A DNA stretch of 64,000 nt from Bursaphelenchus xylophilus. Taxonomy: Eukaryota > Nematoda > Chromadorea > Rhabditida > Aphelenchoididae. Each line of letters starts with the position of its first letter. Position 1 is the first letter of the stretch. The position numbers were made by a program, and so were the translations under genes. The notes under the pieces were generated by a model. That model worked only from the letters and a program-made list of their open reading frames with translations. It was not told the DNA's origin and did no database searches. Positions 21,798-35,580 of this stretch are shown here, in pieces. Location: the NCBI GenBank assembly GCA_904066235.2, contig CAJFCV020000003.1:3906001-3970000 (forward strand). Reading direction: 5' to 3'.

Positions 21798-21986
21798 TAG
21801 TCCGTTCGCAAAGTCGCTGGAGTGATTCCGCGACATGCAATGTGCGAAAACAACAGTCCGCCTTGCACTGTGCAACTTCTTGCTTTCTGCACCGTGCAAC
21901 AGGCTTCTTTGGGATGTCGCTCGCACCCTGACTTTTGCACTGTGCATATCGCCAAAAATCACACCAATGACTTTGCGGACGGACTA
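21798..21986. mobile_element. MITE family B, copy 2
   Basis: Begins TAGTCCGTTCGCAAAGTCGC and ends GACTTTGCGGACGGACTA, an inverted repeat of about 18 bp that continues inward with GTGATT / AATCAC. The centre holds GCACTGTGC (twice), GCACCGTGC and GCAATGTGC, the palindrome of the 34-kb array. About 190 bp, non-coding. Confidence 0.82.
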
Positions 21987-26988: not shown

Positions 26989-29027
26989 TTAGGCGACTGC
27001 TGGGATTTCATCAACAATTTTTTTGACATCTCGGAGCTTGAGGATGTACTTGATGTAATGTTCTGTGATTCTTCTGTCCACTTTCGACTCCGCGACTACA
27101 ATCATTCCATTGTCAACGAAGAAGTCGAGGTCCAGGACAGTATCATCATCATCGGGATCTTTCTGCTCGGCTCTTTCTCTCGTATCTTTTCCAAGTTCAT
27201 TGACGATCAACTAAAACAATATAAAATTATTTTTCAACATAAAACTAAACTCCAAAATCTCTCAAGTTCTAATCCAACGCACCTTGAAGGTCAATAGTTT
27301 TCCCACAAATGTATCCAGTTCAGATTCTCCAATGTCCATGAACGATGCCAATTTAGCGACTGGAAGTGAGGTGTACAATTTCAAGTATCCTCGAAGAACA
27401 GGCAAACAAATTTGTGACTCAATTCCCTCCAGGAAAACATTACACTGCCGGATCAACGGTTCCGAAGCCACATTGGATCCATCGAAGACGGTGGTTGTCG
27501 GAGACAGAGTCTTCGGAGCTCCTTGCATAAAACAATGTCGGAATTCGTCGATTTCTCTAAAAGATGACGACGAAACATTGTAAAATACTCATTCAATAGT
27601 TGATCCATCTAAATACAAAAAACAAACAAGAGAAAAACCTTACCCATTAGACATTCTGAGGACTCTCTCTCCCAGCCGGTCCATCAATTGAGTTTGAATC
27701 GCCTCATCGATGCGTTGTGGTTGAAGACACAGGCAGATGGCCAACAAATAATACAATTGCTCGTGGGTTTTGGCAATCTAAAATAAACATCAATTTTAGC
27801 TTTTTCAATCAAAAATTATATTACACATGCCAAGTACACCATAAAAACAAACAAAAAAATGTCTGTTTTAACACTCAAAACTTACAACATCGTATTTGGT
27901 TGGCTTCTTAGCATTCTGCTGCTGTCCTTGAGGTTGGAGGTTTTGAGTTCGCTGGATGTAAAGCAAACAATTGACGAAGATCTTGGTAGCCTCTCCATAA
28001 TTTCTCATCATCATGTGGGAGAATCCAACAAAGTAATGGAGAGTCACAAAGCATGATGGAACGGCGTTGTAGAGACCCTAAAAATTAAAAAAGAATTGAA
28101 ATTGGACTCACCTTTGGATCGAACTCCAAATTCTCCACAGTTCTCAGAGCTTGATGATAATCTCCAAGGAGCACATGCATTCTCAACAACCCAATCAGAG
28201 CAAAGTATCCCAGCTTGAAGTACAACGGGGAGCGGCCAAATTCATCAGCAACATCATCGGGATTACCTAAAAATTAAATAAAAAATCATAAAAAATATCA
28301 AAAAGTGTGCTTACGTCCTTCCCGAATAGCCTTCAGCTGCTCATTAACCTGTGATTTGTCCAAGAGAGAGTAGAGAATGTTGAGAACTGGATAGATATTC
28401 CACACGTTCTCTAATTCTTCAAACTCCAACATCTCTTCATTATCATCGGCAGTTCTCTTCGTAGGGTTGGTACGGTACAAGCAGAAAGCTTGGAATTGAT
28501 AGACGAACTCATCAATGATATTCCACAACCAAACATTTGGGAGGATAATATCCGTTGGTTGTTCTTTTCCACAAAGAAGTTCAGAAAAGAGCTCCTGATA
28601 GTTAAGATAAGATTCGTAGCGATGTTGGAGCGATGGTCCACGGCGAGAACGTTGGTAGAGATCGCGGTAGTAGAGCTCCTTGTAAAGGACGATGAAAAGA
28701 TGGTCTAAACGTTGAAATAATGGAATAAAAAGACTTACCGAAGCTGTTGGTATCTTCTAATTTCTTGGCATCCGGCCAGCTTCTTTCAGAGAAAAACCGG
28801 TCCGACTGTTCTCCGAAAAAGTGCTTGTACAGTTCGTAGACTTCATCCACTTGTTTTTCCTGGATAATTCGATGCAAATAGATCAAGAAATGCAAGACGT
28901 CCTCTTGGATATCTAAAGTAATATCCTTAGAGTATAAAAATCTAAAATCATAAACAAAAAAATCATAAAACCACCTACCATGAGGGTTGCTGACCACAAG
29001 CTCATCAGAGCTATTTTCGGACTCCAT
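26989..29027 (-). CDS. eif-3.L: Eukaryotic translation initiation factor 3 subunit L
   Basis: eIF3L is a core PCI-type subunit of the eIF3 complex, which recruits the 43S pre-initiation complex to mRNA. Eight exons join in phase: 29027-28979, 28912-28739, 28704-28315, 28266-28112, 28077-27886, 27777-27644, 27556-27283 and 27210-26989, giving 529 residues, a normal family length. Recognisable blocks include FLIYLHRIIQEK near the N-terminus, SYLNYQELFSELL, IWN-type MWNIIDEFVYQFQAF, LGYFALIGLLRMHVLLGDY, VTLHYFVGFSHMMMRNY, and the PCI-like end LKLYTSLPVAKLASFMDIGE. All seven acceptors end in TAG rather than CAG. A TTTTAG acceptor 18 nt before the ATG (exon would begin at 29045) looks like a spliced-leader site. 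The upstream neighbour on the same strand ends 588 nt away, too far for a typical nematode operon. Confidence 0.93.
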
Positions 29028-29614: not shown

Positions 29615-32600
29615 CTAAAGTTCATCGTGTTTAGGCTTCAACGCGGGGTAGACGTTCTCGACGAACCAGCTGAACGGTTTGCACTCCAACTTCTCCTTGA
29701 GGGCCAGGCGTTCACTCAAATCTCCGGCGTCCAGTCGAGCGGCGCTTCTTCTGGCCTTGAAATAGTCTTTTTCGTGGTCTCCCAGCCAAACTTTGGCGAT
29801 TCGCAGGGTGTTCAGGGCATTCGTGTCGACTCCAGGCTTGGTTTTGTATGGGCGACGCATACGGAAGACGTGGCCGACTCGACTGCACGGGGCGATTTTT
29901 ACCTTTCCACCGCAAAGCCAGGCCTGAAAATTGGGAAATTTTAGAGGGAAAGGGGGCGAAATAAGGATCGATTTGGATTTTAATCACTTTCTAGGGCGTT
30001 ATAGTCAATCTACTGTAGATAAAATGGGAAAAAATCAAGAATTATGACATTTTTTAGCGAATTTTGATGAAAAAGACCTTGTTTTTGGCTAAAATCTCAA
30101 AAATATCTTTGGAAATCGACTTTTATGGACTGATTCCTTTGTCTCAAGGCCTGATACTTATTCTTCTGTCCCTATACTTCATTGCCATACTATCTTTACT
30201 AAAATTTCAACTAAAAATCTATGATATTTTAGCCATTTTCAAACCCCGACATCGCTCCAAAAACCTCTGATAACTCACTCTAATCGAGATCTCAATGTTC
30301 TCTCCGCCCCAGATCTCCATTCCCATGTCGAATTCTCCCAATTCCTTGAAGAATTCCCGGTCCACGGCCATCAATCCGCCGGAGAGGGCGGGCGAATCGA
30401 ACGGCTTCACGTTGTGTTCCTCGGTGTCGAAGTAGGACCAGTCAAAGTATTCCCATTTGAAGTTCAACGCCCAATCGAACCCTCCTTTCGCTACCATGCT
30501 CTGCTCGTAGGCAAAGTTTTGAGGGTTGATGAGGTCGACAATTGGGGCGACAACACTGGAAAAATGATGATTTTTTTGGGTTTTTGGTGTTTTCTTGTAT
30601 TTTTTTAGGGAATTTGAGGAAAAAAGTGGTCTAGAATTATAAAAAAGGTACTAAAAATATATTTCCTATGTTATAATTTTAATTTTGGGCAAGAAATAAG
30701 CCCTTGACATTATAAATTATATTATCCATGACCAAACATTGAGTCCCAAAATTTTTACTCTCAAATTTTCTGGAAGTTTAGTAAATATGTTTTAGATAGA
30801 CCATAATTAAACTCTTCAAAATTTCAGCACTTTCTTTGCAAGCAGAAAAAAGATATTCACAATTTTCTTTGCGAAAGACCATGGCCAAGACCGGTTGTGT
30901 CCCAAAAGTACAGAATGCCGTGCATGGGAAATGAGGAGAGTTGGCTGCAAATTGGCAAAGTGCCTTAAAAACGCCTTAAAAAGTTTTATTCTCAATTTCT
31001 GCCTCCTTTTCTGCCCTTGACTCATTTTTAAAATCTTTTTTTGCTACTGTAATTTAAAAATTTTTCGAGAGAGTACGTAAAATGAGGAGAGTCGGCCAGA
31101 CAAAGAAACTTCTTTTGCTTATAACTGTTTGAATTTCTGTGGGAAAAAGTTGATTTTTTGAGGAAATAGTGTACTCCTCAGTTGAAACAGACGCTGATCT
31201 TTTGAAGATTAAAATCGGAAAAAAAGTTGCGGATTTTTTCAAAATTTTAGTCAAAAAAATCCGGGGATTTTTAAATTGCGTGTAAAAAATCTTGCAAATT
31301 TTTGGAAAAATTAACATTCTTATTTTGGGCTAACAGAGGAAGTACTCCAAGTGCGACGCTCAGATTTTGATGAAACTTGGCACAAATTTAGAATAAGTTT
31401 ATCTAAGGTATATGCGAAAATCCTAGCTCGCGCTTTGCAGAAACAACCGAGATTTTTAGATCGAAAGTCGGCCAAAATTTAGGACTTTTTGCCGAATTTC
31501 GGCACAAAAAGTTTCACGCCTATTTCAACCGTAAAGGATAATGTTTCTACAAAAAAATAAATTTTTTCCGCATAAAACTGCCAAAGTTATTGCCAAAAAG
31601 CGTTTTTCTCTCTGACCGCTCTCCACGATTAGCGTGCTCTCTCGGCGGCATAAATCGTCCGATATCTCGGCGGCGCCTGCAAAGCGCGAGCTAAAACTTT
31701 CAGGAATTGATATTTAGTCTATTCCCGACGTGTGTGCAAAATTTAAAGAAAATCTGAGCGTCGCACTTAGAGTACTTCCCCTGTAAGTTCTATGTATTAA
31801 AATTTGAGGGGAAAAAATCTTACGTCTTCCTGTCCTCCTGGATGACCTTGATCAACGGCTCCAACCATCTGTGATTCACCTCGCAATGCGAATCCAGGAC
31901 AACAATAATATCTCCGCTCGCTTCTCTGGCGGCCAAAGTCTTGGCCCGGATCAATCCCTGTCTCTCCTTGGCCGACACGAATTTAACCTTTTTCCAGCCA
32001 TGGGACTCGGCGTACTCTTTGAGCGGCTCTTCGATGCTCAAATGGGACTCGGAATAGTCGTCGTACAAGATGATTTCGTGCAGTAATTTCTCTGGAGTCC
32101 GATCGAAGATTCCGTTGATCATTCGGACCAGAACGGAGAACGCCTCGTTGTGGTAGATGATGATAATGGAGGCGGTTTTGTGGAGATCGGAGTAATCGAT
32201 TTTGTCGCAGCTGAAAAAAGAGGGTAAAATACGACAGACCATACACAGTAATTTTCTAAAATCGAAAAAATATTTTGGTGCGACTTTTATTTTTATTTTT
32301 TTTTGAATTTTCGAGTTCATTTTCGAGACAGCACGTAAAATGAGGAGATTCGATCAGATGAAAAATGTTTTTCGCTTGCAGCTCTCTGAATTTCTATCAA
32401 AAAAAAGTTTGTTTTTTGTAGGAAAATTATAGTCATCATTTATGACAGACCACAACTTTTTCAAAGCCGGATTTTTGTTTCGTTCCTGTCTTACAATCTC
32501 TAATCTTTGCAAAAAAATCGGAGCCCCAATCGAATACAATTCTAGCCAAAAAATGGCTTAAATGCTTTCTTTTACATCTTTAGCTGGCGCCAAGCATAGA

Positions 32601-33248
32601 TTTGCCAGAACTAATTTTAATTGTTGAGCAGTAAATTTGGCTTACAGTAGGCCGCGGCCGGTTCTCTTTGGCCTAGGGCTTTTCATATCAGCCTGTCGGG
32701 AAAATAATGAGCGCTCTGTCGCATGGAAAATCGCATCGCTGAAGTGAAATGACTTTGCCGCGACACAATTTGTTTTCTCGGCGGCGATGCGATTTTCGAT
32801 GCAGCAGAGCGCTCATTATTTTCCCGACGGATTGATAGCTCATTTTTAAAAGTGATTAAATCGCTTTTCAACTTTGTCAAATTAACTTGTAGTTACATGT
32901 GATTGCAGAAAAAGAAATTTCATGAGCTGAACCGTTGCCTACTTTCTTTGAACTGAAATCCTACAGACAATTCCTCACTTACAGCTCATTATAAGTCTTG
33001 GGGACATCCCTCTTTGGCCCAATCTTGTCGCTGGTCAAAACATTGAAACTGTATGCATTTACTCCCTCCTCGTAGTACTTGTAATGCTTGTGTTCGTTGT
33101 TCAGTTTGTGCTCAGTGACATTGCAATTACTGCGATCCAATTCGTCCCATTCCTTCGTCTTCCGCAGGGGATTTATGTGCTCACATTCCGGCTTTTCATC
33201 GGCTACAACGGCCGCTAGGAAAGCGGCGAACAATAAAGCGTATCGCAT
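29615..33248 (-). CDS. Polypeptide N-acetylgalactosaminyltransferase, lectin-less, with HDEL terminus
   Basis: GT27 enzymes start mucin-type O-glycosylation by moving GalNAc from UDP-GalNAc to Ser/Thr. Four exons join in phase (33248-32983, 32210-31824, 30555-30279, 29923-29615) to give 412 residues. Catalytic marks are complete: [20 protein letters not shown] (about 109-128), the metal-binding DSH (195-197), [11 protein letters not shown] (300-310) and SRVGH (324-328). Two things are odd. The N-terminus [20 protein letters not shown] looks like a cleavable signal peptide rather than a type II anchor. The protein then stops right after the catalytic domain with ...KPKHDEL, so the usual C-terminal ricin-type lectin domain is absent and an ER-retrieval signal takes its place. 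No lectin exon is visible in the 588 nt to the next gene. C. elegans GLY-8 is, as far as I recall, similarly short, but orthology is not shown here. A TTTTCAG acceptor lies 15 nt before the ATG. Confidence 0.9.
31060..31316. repeat. Repeat family F, copy 1
   Basis: About 255 bp in intron 2 of the GalNAc-transferase. It shares long stretches with 33477-33745, such as GAGAGAGTACGTAAAATGA, GTCGGCCAGACAAAGAAAC and AAATTGCGTGTAAAAAATCT. Confidence 0.75.
31334..31783. mobile_element. Family D inverted-repeat element, intact copy
   Basis: Begins CAGAGGAAGTACTCCAAGTG and ends with CACTTAGAGTACTTCCCCTG, inverted repeats of about 35 bp that include GCGACGCTCAGATTTT. The length is 450 bp and it is followed by TA. 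It lies in GalNAc-transferase intron 2. It preserves the empty site of the mariner found in the other copy at 4012-5338. Confidence 0.82.
32317..32450. repeat. Repeat family F, partial copy
   Basis: A diverged partial copy in GalNAc-transferase intron 1, recognisable by CGTAAAATGAGGAGATTCG and the following AAAAATG...TTGCAGCTCTCTGAATTTCT. Confidence 0.5.
32686..32837. mobile_element. MITE family C, copy 2
   Basis: Begins TATCAGCCTGTCGGGAAAAT and ends ATTATTTTCCCGACGGATTG ATA. The inverted repeats extend inward (AATGAGCGCTCTGTCGCAT / ATGCAGCAGAGCGCTCATT). About 150 bp, inside GalNAc-transferase intron 1. Confidence 0.82.
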
Positions 33249-33476: not shown

Positions 33477-33745
33477 GCAATTTTTTCGAGAGAGTACGTA
33501 AAATGAAGAGAGTCGGCCAGACAAAGAAACGTTTTTTGCTTGTAACTCTTTGAATTTCTTTGGGAAAAAGTTGATTTTTTGTGGAAATAGTATACTCCTC
33601 AGTTGAAACAGATATTGATTTTTTGAAGGTTAAAATCAGAAAAAAAAATTTCGAATTTTTAAAAAATTTTAGTCAAAAAATTTCGGGGTTTTTAAAATTG
33701 CGTGTAAAAAATCTTGGAAATTGTTTGAAAAATTGCGTTTTTATT
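33477..33745. repeat. Repeat family F, copy 2
   Basis: About 265 bp immediately upstream of the GalNAc-transferase gene, same orientation and close similarity to the copy at 31060-31316. Shorter, inverted relatives of its core GAGAGAGTAC...ATGAGGAGAG are visible near 13270 and 14370. Confidence 0.72.
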
Positions 33746-34264
33746 TTTGGCCAAATTTTATCAAAATTTGAGGGCAATTTTCCGATCAAATTTTGAAAAA
33801 CCGCTCAAAAAATGGGTTCAAACCCAAGTTTCAATTGAAAACAAACAAAGTTCCCCCATTTTTATACCCAAACCCTTTTCAATTGGTCTGTAACCAGCCC
33901 CCACACCTTTTACAACACCTTTTTCGAAAAACTAACCCCAAAAGAATGGACTGTAAACTCTCGCAAGATCTCAGTGGACGCGCGGAGAGTTTTGAGAAAA
34001 ACAAAAAATTGATTGGGCTTTCTCAAGGCCCTTTCCTTCAAGGTAACCTCATTCGTTGCGTCTTATATGCGACGCTTTTTTGGGGGGAAACGTCGAAAAA
34101 AAGACGTCGCGTTGGAAGGTTCGCGCGATTCCAGAAGAATCTCAAGGAACTGGTGGACGAATAACAGATTGTAATTACACGTCAGCGTAACCAGGAAATT
34201 ACTTAAAATTTTTTTTTTAATTCCTTTTTAAAGTAAAAAAAAGTAATGCAAAAAAATTTTTTTT

Positions 34265-35234
34265 GCACAGTGCAAAAATAAGTCATCATTTTTGCTGACT
34301 GCACTGTGCAAAAAACAAACCATTTCCTTTTCACTGCACCGTGCAAAATGTCAAAATTAAAAATTCAGATGCACGGTGCAAAAAACAAAAGCACCTTCTC
34401 TTCATTGCACTGTGCAAAAACACAGTCAATTGCACCGTGCGAAAACAAAAAATCTCATTCTTCACTGCACCGTGCAAAATGTCAAGATCGATAAAACAGA
34501 CGCACGGTGCAAAAAACAAAACATTTCCTTTTCGCTGCACAGTGCAAGAAAAGAGCCCATTGCACTGTGCAAAAAAAAAAGAGCTCATCCCTCACCGCAC
34601 CGTGCAAAATGTCAAAATCAATAAAGCAGATGCACGGTGCAAAAACAAAAAGCACTTTCTCTTCATGGCATTGTGCAAAACCCCAGTCAACTGCACCGTG
34701 CGAAAACCAAAAAGCTCATCCCTCATTGCACTGTGCGCCCGCCGCTTTGCAAAAAACATGCGACGAATGTGCACTGTGCAAAATTGAATCCACTTTCACG
34801 TCATTCCACTCGTTATGCGACAAATCAATTGATCGAAATCACTGCACAGTGCAATTGAATCAACGACAAACATCATTGGCGACAAACCCACGACGAATGA
34901 AAAGTTTGAAAGATTGCACAGTGCAAACCACATTTCGGCAAAAAAGTTCAGCGACAACACCATTCTTTCGCGATTTTCCGCTTTTTGTCGCTTGCGGCGG
35001 AATCTTGTCGCTGCGACAATTTGAAGTTTTGATTTTTTTCTGCGACATCGCGGTCCTTGCATTCAACTTGCCGCCAGTTTCAGTGCAACATCGAAAAGCG
35101 ACATGTCGCGACCGCCAAATGTCGCAGAGGTTTTGAGGAAGAACAAGCCGGATGTTTGGTCGCTCGATGAGGTGATTTTGCACAGTGCAAAAGGGAATGA
35201 GTGCAGTGTTGGGAAAAAGTCGGATGCACAGTGC
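34265..35234. repeat. Array of GCACNGTGC palindromes
   Basis: About twenty copies of the 9-nt palindrome GCACNGTGC (N = any base, rare variants such as GCATTGTGC), nearly always followed by AAAA or flanked by T/A. Spacing is mostly 25-50 nt at the left and looser at the right. Within it, 34336-34736 is a tandem repeat of about 131 bp (three units starting at 34336, 34467 and 34597), each with four palindromes. The surrounding sequence to the right is rich in GCGAC words. No coding potential is convincing. Confidence 0.85.
34336..34736. repeat. ~131-bp tandem repeat, about three units
   Basis: Unit starts at 34336, 34467, 34597 and a decayed fourth at 34728. Each unit reads GCACCGTGCAAAATGTCAA, then GCACGGTGCAAAAA, then GCACTGTGC (or variant), then GCACCGTGCGAAAAC or GCACTGTGC. 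Units differ by scattered substitutions. Confidence 0.8.
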
Positions 35235-35429: not shown

Positions 35430-35580
35430 TATCAGTCTGTCGGGAAAATAATGAGGGCAATGTCGCTGAGCCGATCGCGTCGCTGAAGTGAAAAAAAAAA
35501 TTATGATTTTGCCGTGACACGATTCATTTTTGCAATTTTTGATGGGACGTTGCGCTCATTATTTTCACGACAGACTGATA
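35430..35580. mobile_element. MITE family C, copy 3
   Basis: Begins TATCAGTCTGTCGGGAAAAT and ends ATTATTTTCACGACAGACTG ATA. 151 bp. The interior shares GTCGCTGAAGTGAA with copy 2 and with family B. Confidence 0.82.

What the first reader, a model, noticed from the sequence alone, without database searches (positions are those of the whole stretch)
29615..33248. A GalNAc-transferase built for the ER: signal peptide, no lectin domain, HDEL end
Known animal polypeptide GalNAc-transferases are mostly type II Golgi proteins with a C-terminal ricin-type lectin domain. This one has a complete catalytic domain (DSH, WGGEN, SRVGH), but a cleavable-looking signal peptide replaces the membrane anchor. 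The chain ends KPKHDEL* directly after the catalytic domain. The sequence shows this directly. The inference is a soluble, ER-resident enzyme that would start O-GalNAc addition before the Golgi, on folding substrates and without lectin-guided follow-up.
Basis: partly seen in the sequence, partly recalled or inferred. Interest (0 to 1): 0.78.

Follow-up and report, generated by a model that had tools for sequence, protein, structure and literature searches.

The report
Nematode ER-tagged O-glycosylation starter enzyme
This worm gene encodes an enzyme of the family that starts mucin-type sugar chains, but it is built as a soluble protein with a conserved endoplasmic-reticulum address tag, which suggests that roundworms have an enzyme dedicated to starting these sugars before the Golgi.

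Summary
Four minus-strand exons (29615-33248) encode a 412-aa GalNAc-transferase-type catalytic domain with a signal-peptide-like N-terminus, no lectin domain found, and the ending KPKHDEL*. It is a GLY-8 orthologue. Of 58 GLY-8 proteins retrieved, 57 end xx[E/D]L and 41 fit the PROSITE ER-retrieval pattern; of 162 other retrieved proteins none does. Trees place GLY-8 as a nematode branch of the GALNT11 class, sister to lectin-bearing nematode GALNT11; the tag needs one gain. Two untagged relatives without a detected lectin branch first. Catalytic residues are kept, and the B. okinawaensis orthologue is predicted to fold like GalNAc-T2/T12. The residue at a sugar-pocket alanine is Ser/Pro/Thr in all 58 but Ala in 158 of 161 others and 10 of 10 paralogues, so the donor sugar needs testing. 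Best reading: a constitutive, POGLUT-like ER-resident O-GalNAc initiator. Localisation and activity are inferred. None of the papers listed by my searches of an open-access library was seen to describe the tag.

The parts
32983..33248 (-). coding exon 1: start codon, signal-peptide-like sequence, N-terminal segment with conserved Cys22 and Cys42
33201..33248 (-). signal-peptide-like sequence [16 protein letters not shown] (cleavage after A16 by the recalled -3/-1 rule; no SignalP run)
   Evidence: hydrophobic core 14 residues
33264..33270 (-). TTTTCAG splice acceptor ending 15 nt before the ATG (likely SL trans-splice or 5' UTR intron acceptor)
31824..32210 (-). coding exon 2: first half of the catalytic domain
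31886..31894 (-). DSH metal/UDP motif (residues 195-197, T2 D224-H226)
30279..30555 (-). coding exon 3: peptide- and sugar-binding part
30381..30383 (-). Ser276, at the position of GalNAc-T2 Ala307; Ser/Pro/Thr in the 58 GLY-8 proteins
30297..30311 (-). WGGEN motif (residues 300-304)
29615..29923 (-). coding exon 4: end of catalytic domain, tail, stop
29870..29884 (-). SRVGH motif (residues 324-328, T2 H359)
29618..29629 (-). C-terminal HDEL, ER-retrieval tag

Best explanation
This is the GLY-8 polypeptide GalNAc-transferase of a Bursaphelenchus-like nematode. A signal peptide sends the chain into the ER lumen, where it becomes soluble after cleavage. The exposed HDEL tail is bound by the KDEL receptor in the early Golgi and the enzyme is returned, so it lives in the ER/cis-Golgi cycle. 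There it starts O-GalNAc (Tn) on Ser/Thr of chains that are still folding, without the lectin-guided follow-up glycosylation of its relatives. It arose by duplication of a GALNT11-type Golgi enzyme in early nematodes, with loss of the lectin domain and membrane anchor and then gain of the tag. Shown here by sequence: gene structure, catalytic residues, absence of a detectable lectin, tag and its conservation, phylogeny; by prediction: fold of the closest orthologue. Inferred: signal-peptide cleavage, ER residence, activity, donor, substrates.
For: Gene model and tail. 57 of 58 GLY-8 proteins end xx[E/D]L, 41 of 58 fit PROSITE [KRHQSA][DENQ]EL, against 0 of 162 other retrieved proteins. In the 57 tagged tails (chosen for L at -1 and E/D at -2) K/R/H stands at -4 in 53, and positions -4 and -3 are less variable (1.73 and 1.92 bits) than -5 to -12 (2.79-3.52 bits). 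No PROSITE-like site in the bodies of the 58 (0 of 23,509 positions). Hydrophobic core median 15 against 21; 3 of 26 against 26 of 29 reach 18 (rows picked by hand). Mn/UDP residues kept. AlphaFold2 of the B. okinawaensis orthologue: mean pLDDT 94.2, 61 for the last six residues; best matches GalNAc-T2 and T12. KDEL receptor family at three places of the same genome. One gain of the tag on the tree. Precedent: POGLUT1-3 are soluble ER enzymes with KDEL-like tails including KTEL and REEL (PMC7803782, passages), variants also seen here.
Against: No localisation, transcript or activity data. 16 of the 57 tagged proteins have non-PROSITE variants (KTEL, HEDL, NDEL, DDEL, EDEL and others), some of which may be weak. 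The position of GalNAc-T2 Ala307 is replaced in all 58, R208 is Lys in 55 of 58 and N335 differs in 4 of 58, so donor use may differ. Three of 26 GLY-8 cores are 18 or longer. The recalled GALNT11-type LDL-receptor linker motif was not seen (Thr before the next Cys in 1 of 20 linkers), so a GALNT11-like substrate is not supported in this genome.
Confidence: 0.72

Rival explanations
1. A GT27-fold ER enzyme with a changed donor: the sugar pocket has been altered and it attaches another sugar (for example GlcNAc) or uses UDP-GalNAc poorly.
For: The Ala307-equivalent is Ser/Pro/Thr in all 58 GLY-8 proteins and Ser in both untagged relatives, but Ala in 158 of 161 other proteins and in 10 of 10 paralogues of this genome. 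A review reports a C. elegans O-glycan with GlcNAc linked directly to protein (PMC6272458, passages).
Against: Other positions recalled to contact GalNAc (D224, G308, G309, E334, N335) are kept in 54 to 58 of 58. Three other proteins with non-Ala exist (P0098, P0155, P0193). Ser is a small change. That Ala307 lines the pocket is recalled, not computed here.
Confidence: 0.1
2. A soluble Golgi or secreted GalNAc-transferase whose tail is only a weak retrieval signal, so that it acts mainly in the cis-Golgi or outside.
For: Several tails are weaker variants: a review gives about 80% (KTEL) and 50% (REEL) of the KDEL receptor-binding signal (PMC7803782, passages). Two early-branching relatives have no tag at all.
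Against: The window protein has HDEL, and HDEL/HEEL/KDEL/RDEL make up 31 of 58 tails. The tag stays while the linker before it varies.
Confidence: 0.1
3. A pseudoenzyme: an ER-resident protein that binds unfolded chains or UDP-sugar but does not catalyse.
For: No activity record for GLY-8 was seen in the listings of my searches.
Against: D224, H226, H359, W331 and E334 equivalents are kept in 57 or 58 of 58; well-folded catalytic domain in the orthologue model.
Confidence: 0.06
4. Gene-model artefact: a lectin exon is spliced on past the stop, or the start is wrong.
For: No transcript data were available here; the six-frame lectin search can miss intron-split domains (4 of 10 paralogue loci had no match).
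Against: Another gene begins about 590 nt downstream, and independently annotated orthologues have the same start region and the same tail with no lectin domain listed.
Confidence: 0.02

Closest known systems
GALNT11 / PGANT35A (GT27 polypeptide GalNAc-transferase)
   Same: Same catalytic domain and closest subfamily by tree; 43-50% identity for the lectin-bearing hits listed. C. elegans gly-8 is listed as GALNT11-like in PMC6934317 (passages).
   Different: GALNT11-type proteins have a longer N-terminal hydrophobic segment as of a type II anchor and a C-terminal lectin domain; GLY-8 has a signal-peptide-like start, no lectin found and an ER tag.
C. elegans GLY-8 and nematode orthologues
   Same: This is a member: 86% identical to B. 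okinawaensis P0001, 47-68% to the others, same architecture and tail.
   Different: Nothing basic. A 2015 review describes the nine C. elegans GalNAc-Ts collectively as type-2 membrane proteins (PMC6272458, passages), which does not fit this lineage.
POGLUT1-3 / Rumi (ER protein O-glucosyltransferases)
   Same: Same plan: signal peptide, soluble glycosyltransferase domain, KDEL-like tail (PMC7803782, passages).
   Different: Different catalytic domain (CAP10), other sugar, folded EGF repeats as substrate. Works like, is not a member.
GALA pathway (GALNTs relocated from Golgi to ER)
   Same: O-GalNAc initiation in the ER (PMC3945522, PMC11909126, passages).
   Different: Induced relocation of Golgi enzymes with lectin domains, or an ER-retained GALNT1 made in the laboratory; GLY-8 would be natural, constitutive and lectin-free.

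Membership tests
GT27 polypeptide GalNAc-transferase | GT-A catalytic domain of this family | tested here: met
GT27 polypeptide GalNAc-transferase | Catalytic Asp-x-His, WGGEN-type and His metal-ligand residues | tested here: met
   D195, H197, W300, E303, N304, H328, R331, Y336 in the window protein (residue roles recalled)
GT27 polypeptide GalNAc-transferase | C-terminal ricin-type lectin domain (usual, not absolute) | tested here: not met
   no PF00652 in the protein or, six-frame, in the window
GT27 polypeptide GalNAc-transferase | Type II membrane anchor (usual) | tested here: not met
   hydrophobic core 14 residues followed by an acidic stretch; GALNT11-type median 21. By composition only, no SignalP
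GT27 polypeptide GalNAc-transferase | Transfer of GalNAc from UDP-GalNAc to Ser/Thr | not testable with these tools
   needs enzyme assay; pocket position Ala307 is Ser
GALNT11 subfamily | Groups with GALNT11/PGANT35A rather than other subfamilies | tested here: met
   GLY-8 plus nematode GALNT11 is one group (100/99) among GALNT11 rows; the ten paralogues of this genome form a separate group (98/92). The branch joining it to arthropod GALNT11 is 98/91 but only 58/88; the root is taken to lie towards the paralogues, and named human subfamilies other than GALNT11 were not in the tree
GLY-8 clade | Falls in the nematode GLY-8 clade | tested here: met
   100/99 with 20 others, 100/99 with 36 others; 58 GLY-8 proteins were retrieved in all
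Soluble ER-resident O-glycosyltransferases (POGLUT-type plan) | KDEL-like C-terminus | tested here: met
   HDEL; 57 of 58 orthologues xx[E/D]L
Soluble ER-resident O-glycosyltransferases (POGLUT-type plan) | ER localisation | not testable with these tools
   needs microscopy or fractionation

The most novel reading that the evidence does not exclude
Nematodes evolved a dedicated ER-resident branch of the GT27 family with a remodelled sugar pocket that starts O-glycans (GalNAc or another sugar) on folding proteins, acting as a folding or quality-control mark much as POGLUTs do on EGF repeats. This would be a constitutive, lectin-free counterpart of the disputed mammalian GALA pathway.
Probability: 0.25. 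Interest if true: 0.87.

Novelty: new variant of a known kind. Interest (0 to 1): 0.66.

Why it matters
Mucin-type O-glycosylation is normally placed in the Golgi. Whether GalNAc-transferases act in the ER is argued over in mammals (the abstract opening of PMC6424425 mentions contested data), because there it depends on relocation or engineered tags. A natural GalNAc-transferase with an ER address, kept in sampled nematodes from Bursaphelenchus and Meloidogyne to Caenorhabditis, Strongyloides, Ascaris and filariae, makes ER initiation directly testable in C. elegans. A loss-of-function allele exists there and is reported to suppress TDP-43 motor dysfunction and protein accumulation in a worm model (PMC6934317, passages).

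Tried and rejected
GALNT11-like substrate: I looked for the GALNT11 LDL-receptor linker motif (recalled: Thr just before the first Cys of the next repeat) in the 30 loci kept from 77 PF00057 matches of this genome; 1 of 20 linkers found had Thr there. Not supported. A first pattern was too strict and found one linker; it was replaced.

P0055 (Acrobeloides) was first counted with GLY-8 because of its rank; the tree puts it with nematode GALNT11, so it was taken out and P0066 put in. Final counts are those. P0056 (Trichuris muris; its N-terminus looks to me fused to another gene, not tested) and P0160 (source label lgn, no organism) are early-branching, without a listed lectin, and untagged; both are outside the 58. 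P0056 is among the 162 others, P0160 in neither set. The 58 hold some species twice (for example P0008/P0039 and P0019/P0057), and the 162 hold many near-copies and some incomplete models. P0098, a lectin-bearing protein ending HRNDL, fits the loose pattern and was scored untagged by an id rule. Its pocket residue is Ser; on that tree the pocket change needs two events. Database listings were capped at the best 120 of 608, 386 and 3451 hits.

Trees: one search used 36 of the 58 GLY-8 proteins and one search used 20 of them, besides the window. One search used 26 GLY-8 and 29 GALNT11-type proteins picked by hand for a plausible start; three of the latter (P0128, P0136, P0164) do not reach 18.

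Literature: searches (open-access PMC library only). Among the titles and abstract openings listed, and the passages read, I saw no ER tag of GLY-8 or of another natural GalNAc-transferase. Searches listed only part of their matches (12 of 56, 15 of 36, 8 of 18). Hagen and Nehrke 1998, the C. elegans cloning paper, was seen only in a reference list and not read; it may mention the lack of a lectin domain. RNAi of gly-8 gave no significant change in survival on P. aeruginosa (P = 0.5594; one passage of PMC7064748).

C. elegans GLY-8 itself was not retrieved under that name; four other Caenorhabditis species stand for it (P0010, P0023, P0030, P0038; tails HEEL or HDEL). The window's species is not stated; 86% identity to B. 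okinawaensis only points to Bursaphelenchus or a near relative.

Full report
Observation. The minus strand of 29615-33248 holds a four-exon gene with GT-AG introns that encodes 412 residues; a homology-guided spliced alignment to the B. okinawaensis orthologue returns the same internal exon boundaries. It begins [19 protein letters not shown], carries DSH, WGGEN and SRVGH, and ends KPKHDEL followed by TAG. Pfam gives PF00535 and PF02709 and no lectin. Six lectin (PF00652) places were found in the 78-Mb genome, none in this window. They fall in 6 of the 10 paralogue loci, so this six-frame search misses some intron-split domains and is supporting evidence only. Downstream on the same strand an exon with PF10255 (eIF3L-like) follows, with a likely start codon about 590 nt after the stop.

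Identity. The best database hit is B. okinawaensis (86%), followed by nematode proteins, some of which sources name GLY-8 or N-acetylgalactosaminyltransferase 8. Non-nematode hits that a source numbers are GALNT11 or 35A (best 120 listed). In trees of catalytic domains the GLY-8 rows form one group (100/99; 37 rows including the window, 21). Trichuris P0056 and the unnamed P0160 join next (99/95), and then the nematode GALNT11 rows, most with a listed lectin domain (whole group 100/99). Ten further GalNAc-transferase loci of this genome form a separate group (98/92). None of the matches is a GALNT11 orthologue by these trees, though that search is a lower bound.

The tag. Of 58 GLY-8 proteins, 57 end xx[E/D]L: HDEL 14, HEEL 10, KDEL, REEL, KTEL and HEDL 4 each, KEEL and RDEL 3 each, HNEL and NDEL 2 each, and seven singletons. 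41 of 58 fit the PROSITE pattern. The one without is P0019, named partial; another record of that species, P0057, ends NDEL. Among 162 other retrieved proteins none fits PROSITE and one (P0098) fits the loose pattern. Positions -3 and -4 are less variable than -5 to -12 (-1 and -2 were part of the selection), and the linker before the tag varies in length. On the tree the tag needs one change among 65 scored rows.

The N-terminus. In 26 GLY-8 proteins with a plausible start the uncharged hydrophobic core has median length 15 and reaches 18 or more in 3; in 29 GALNT11-type proteins the median is 21 and 26 reach 18. This fits a cleavable signal peptide, but it is a composition test on hand-picked rows, not a trained predictor.

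Mechanism. KDEL-receptor genes are present in this genome (three places). C. elegans transporters able to carry UDP-GalNAc are reported, and a human UDP-GalNAc transporter is said to localise to the ER (PMC9368800, passages), so donor could plausibly reach the ER lumen; the passages I saw do not place the worm transporters there. The most economical mechanism is the POGLUT plan carried by a GT27 domain: entry by signal peptide, retrieval by the tag, initiation of O-glycans on chains still folding. Loss of gly-8 in C. elegans is reported to reduce TDP-43 motor dysfunction and protein accumulation (PMC6934317, passages), which is compatible with a secretory-pathway role but shows no mechanism.

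Verdict. The finding is real, conserved across the nematodes sampled, and not seen described in the listings and passages I could search. It is a new variant of a known enzyme family rather than a new kind.

Noticed in passing
30381-30383 (Ser276): GLY-8-wide replacement of the sugar-pocket Ala (GalNAc-T2 A307) by Ser/Pro/Thr; a candidate donor-specificity change.
   Followed up: partly
34264-35189 and 21864-21946: Palindrome TGCACNGTGCA occurs 16 times in the window (expected 0.01), 13 of them clustered upstream of the gene, where 130-145 nt repeats also lie.
   Followed up: partly
32686-32837 and 35430-35580: Inverted repeat with 64-nt arms in intron 1, 84% complementary, with a related pair upstream of the gene; looks like a small non-autonomous mobile element.
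   Followed up: no
31062-31114, 32320-32372, 33483-33535: A 53-nt repeat in two introns and upstream of the gene; the first and third copies lie in a 218-nt repeat 85% alike.
   Followed up: no
31330-31384 and 31733-31787: 55-nt inverted repeat, 85% complementary, inside intron 2.
   Followed up: no
28298-29027 (-): eIF3L-like gene (PF10255 in the exon at 28298-28756) about 590 nt downstream on the same strand; possible operon partner.
   Followed up: partly
P0056 and P0160: Early-branching relatives without a listed lectin or an ER tag (tails LLGK and YPTM); P0160 starts with a signal-peptide-like sequence, hinting at loss of lectin before gain of the tag.
   Followed up: partly
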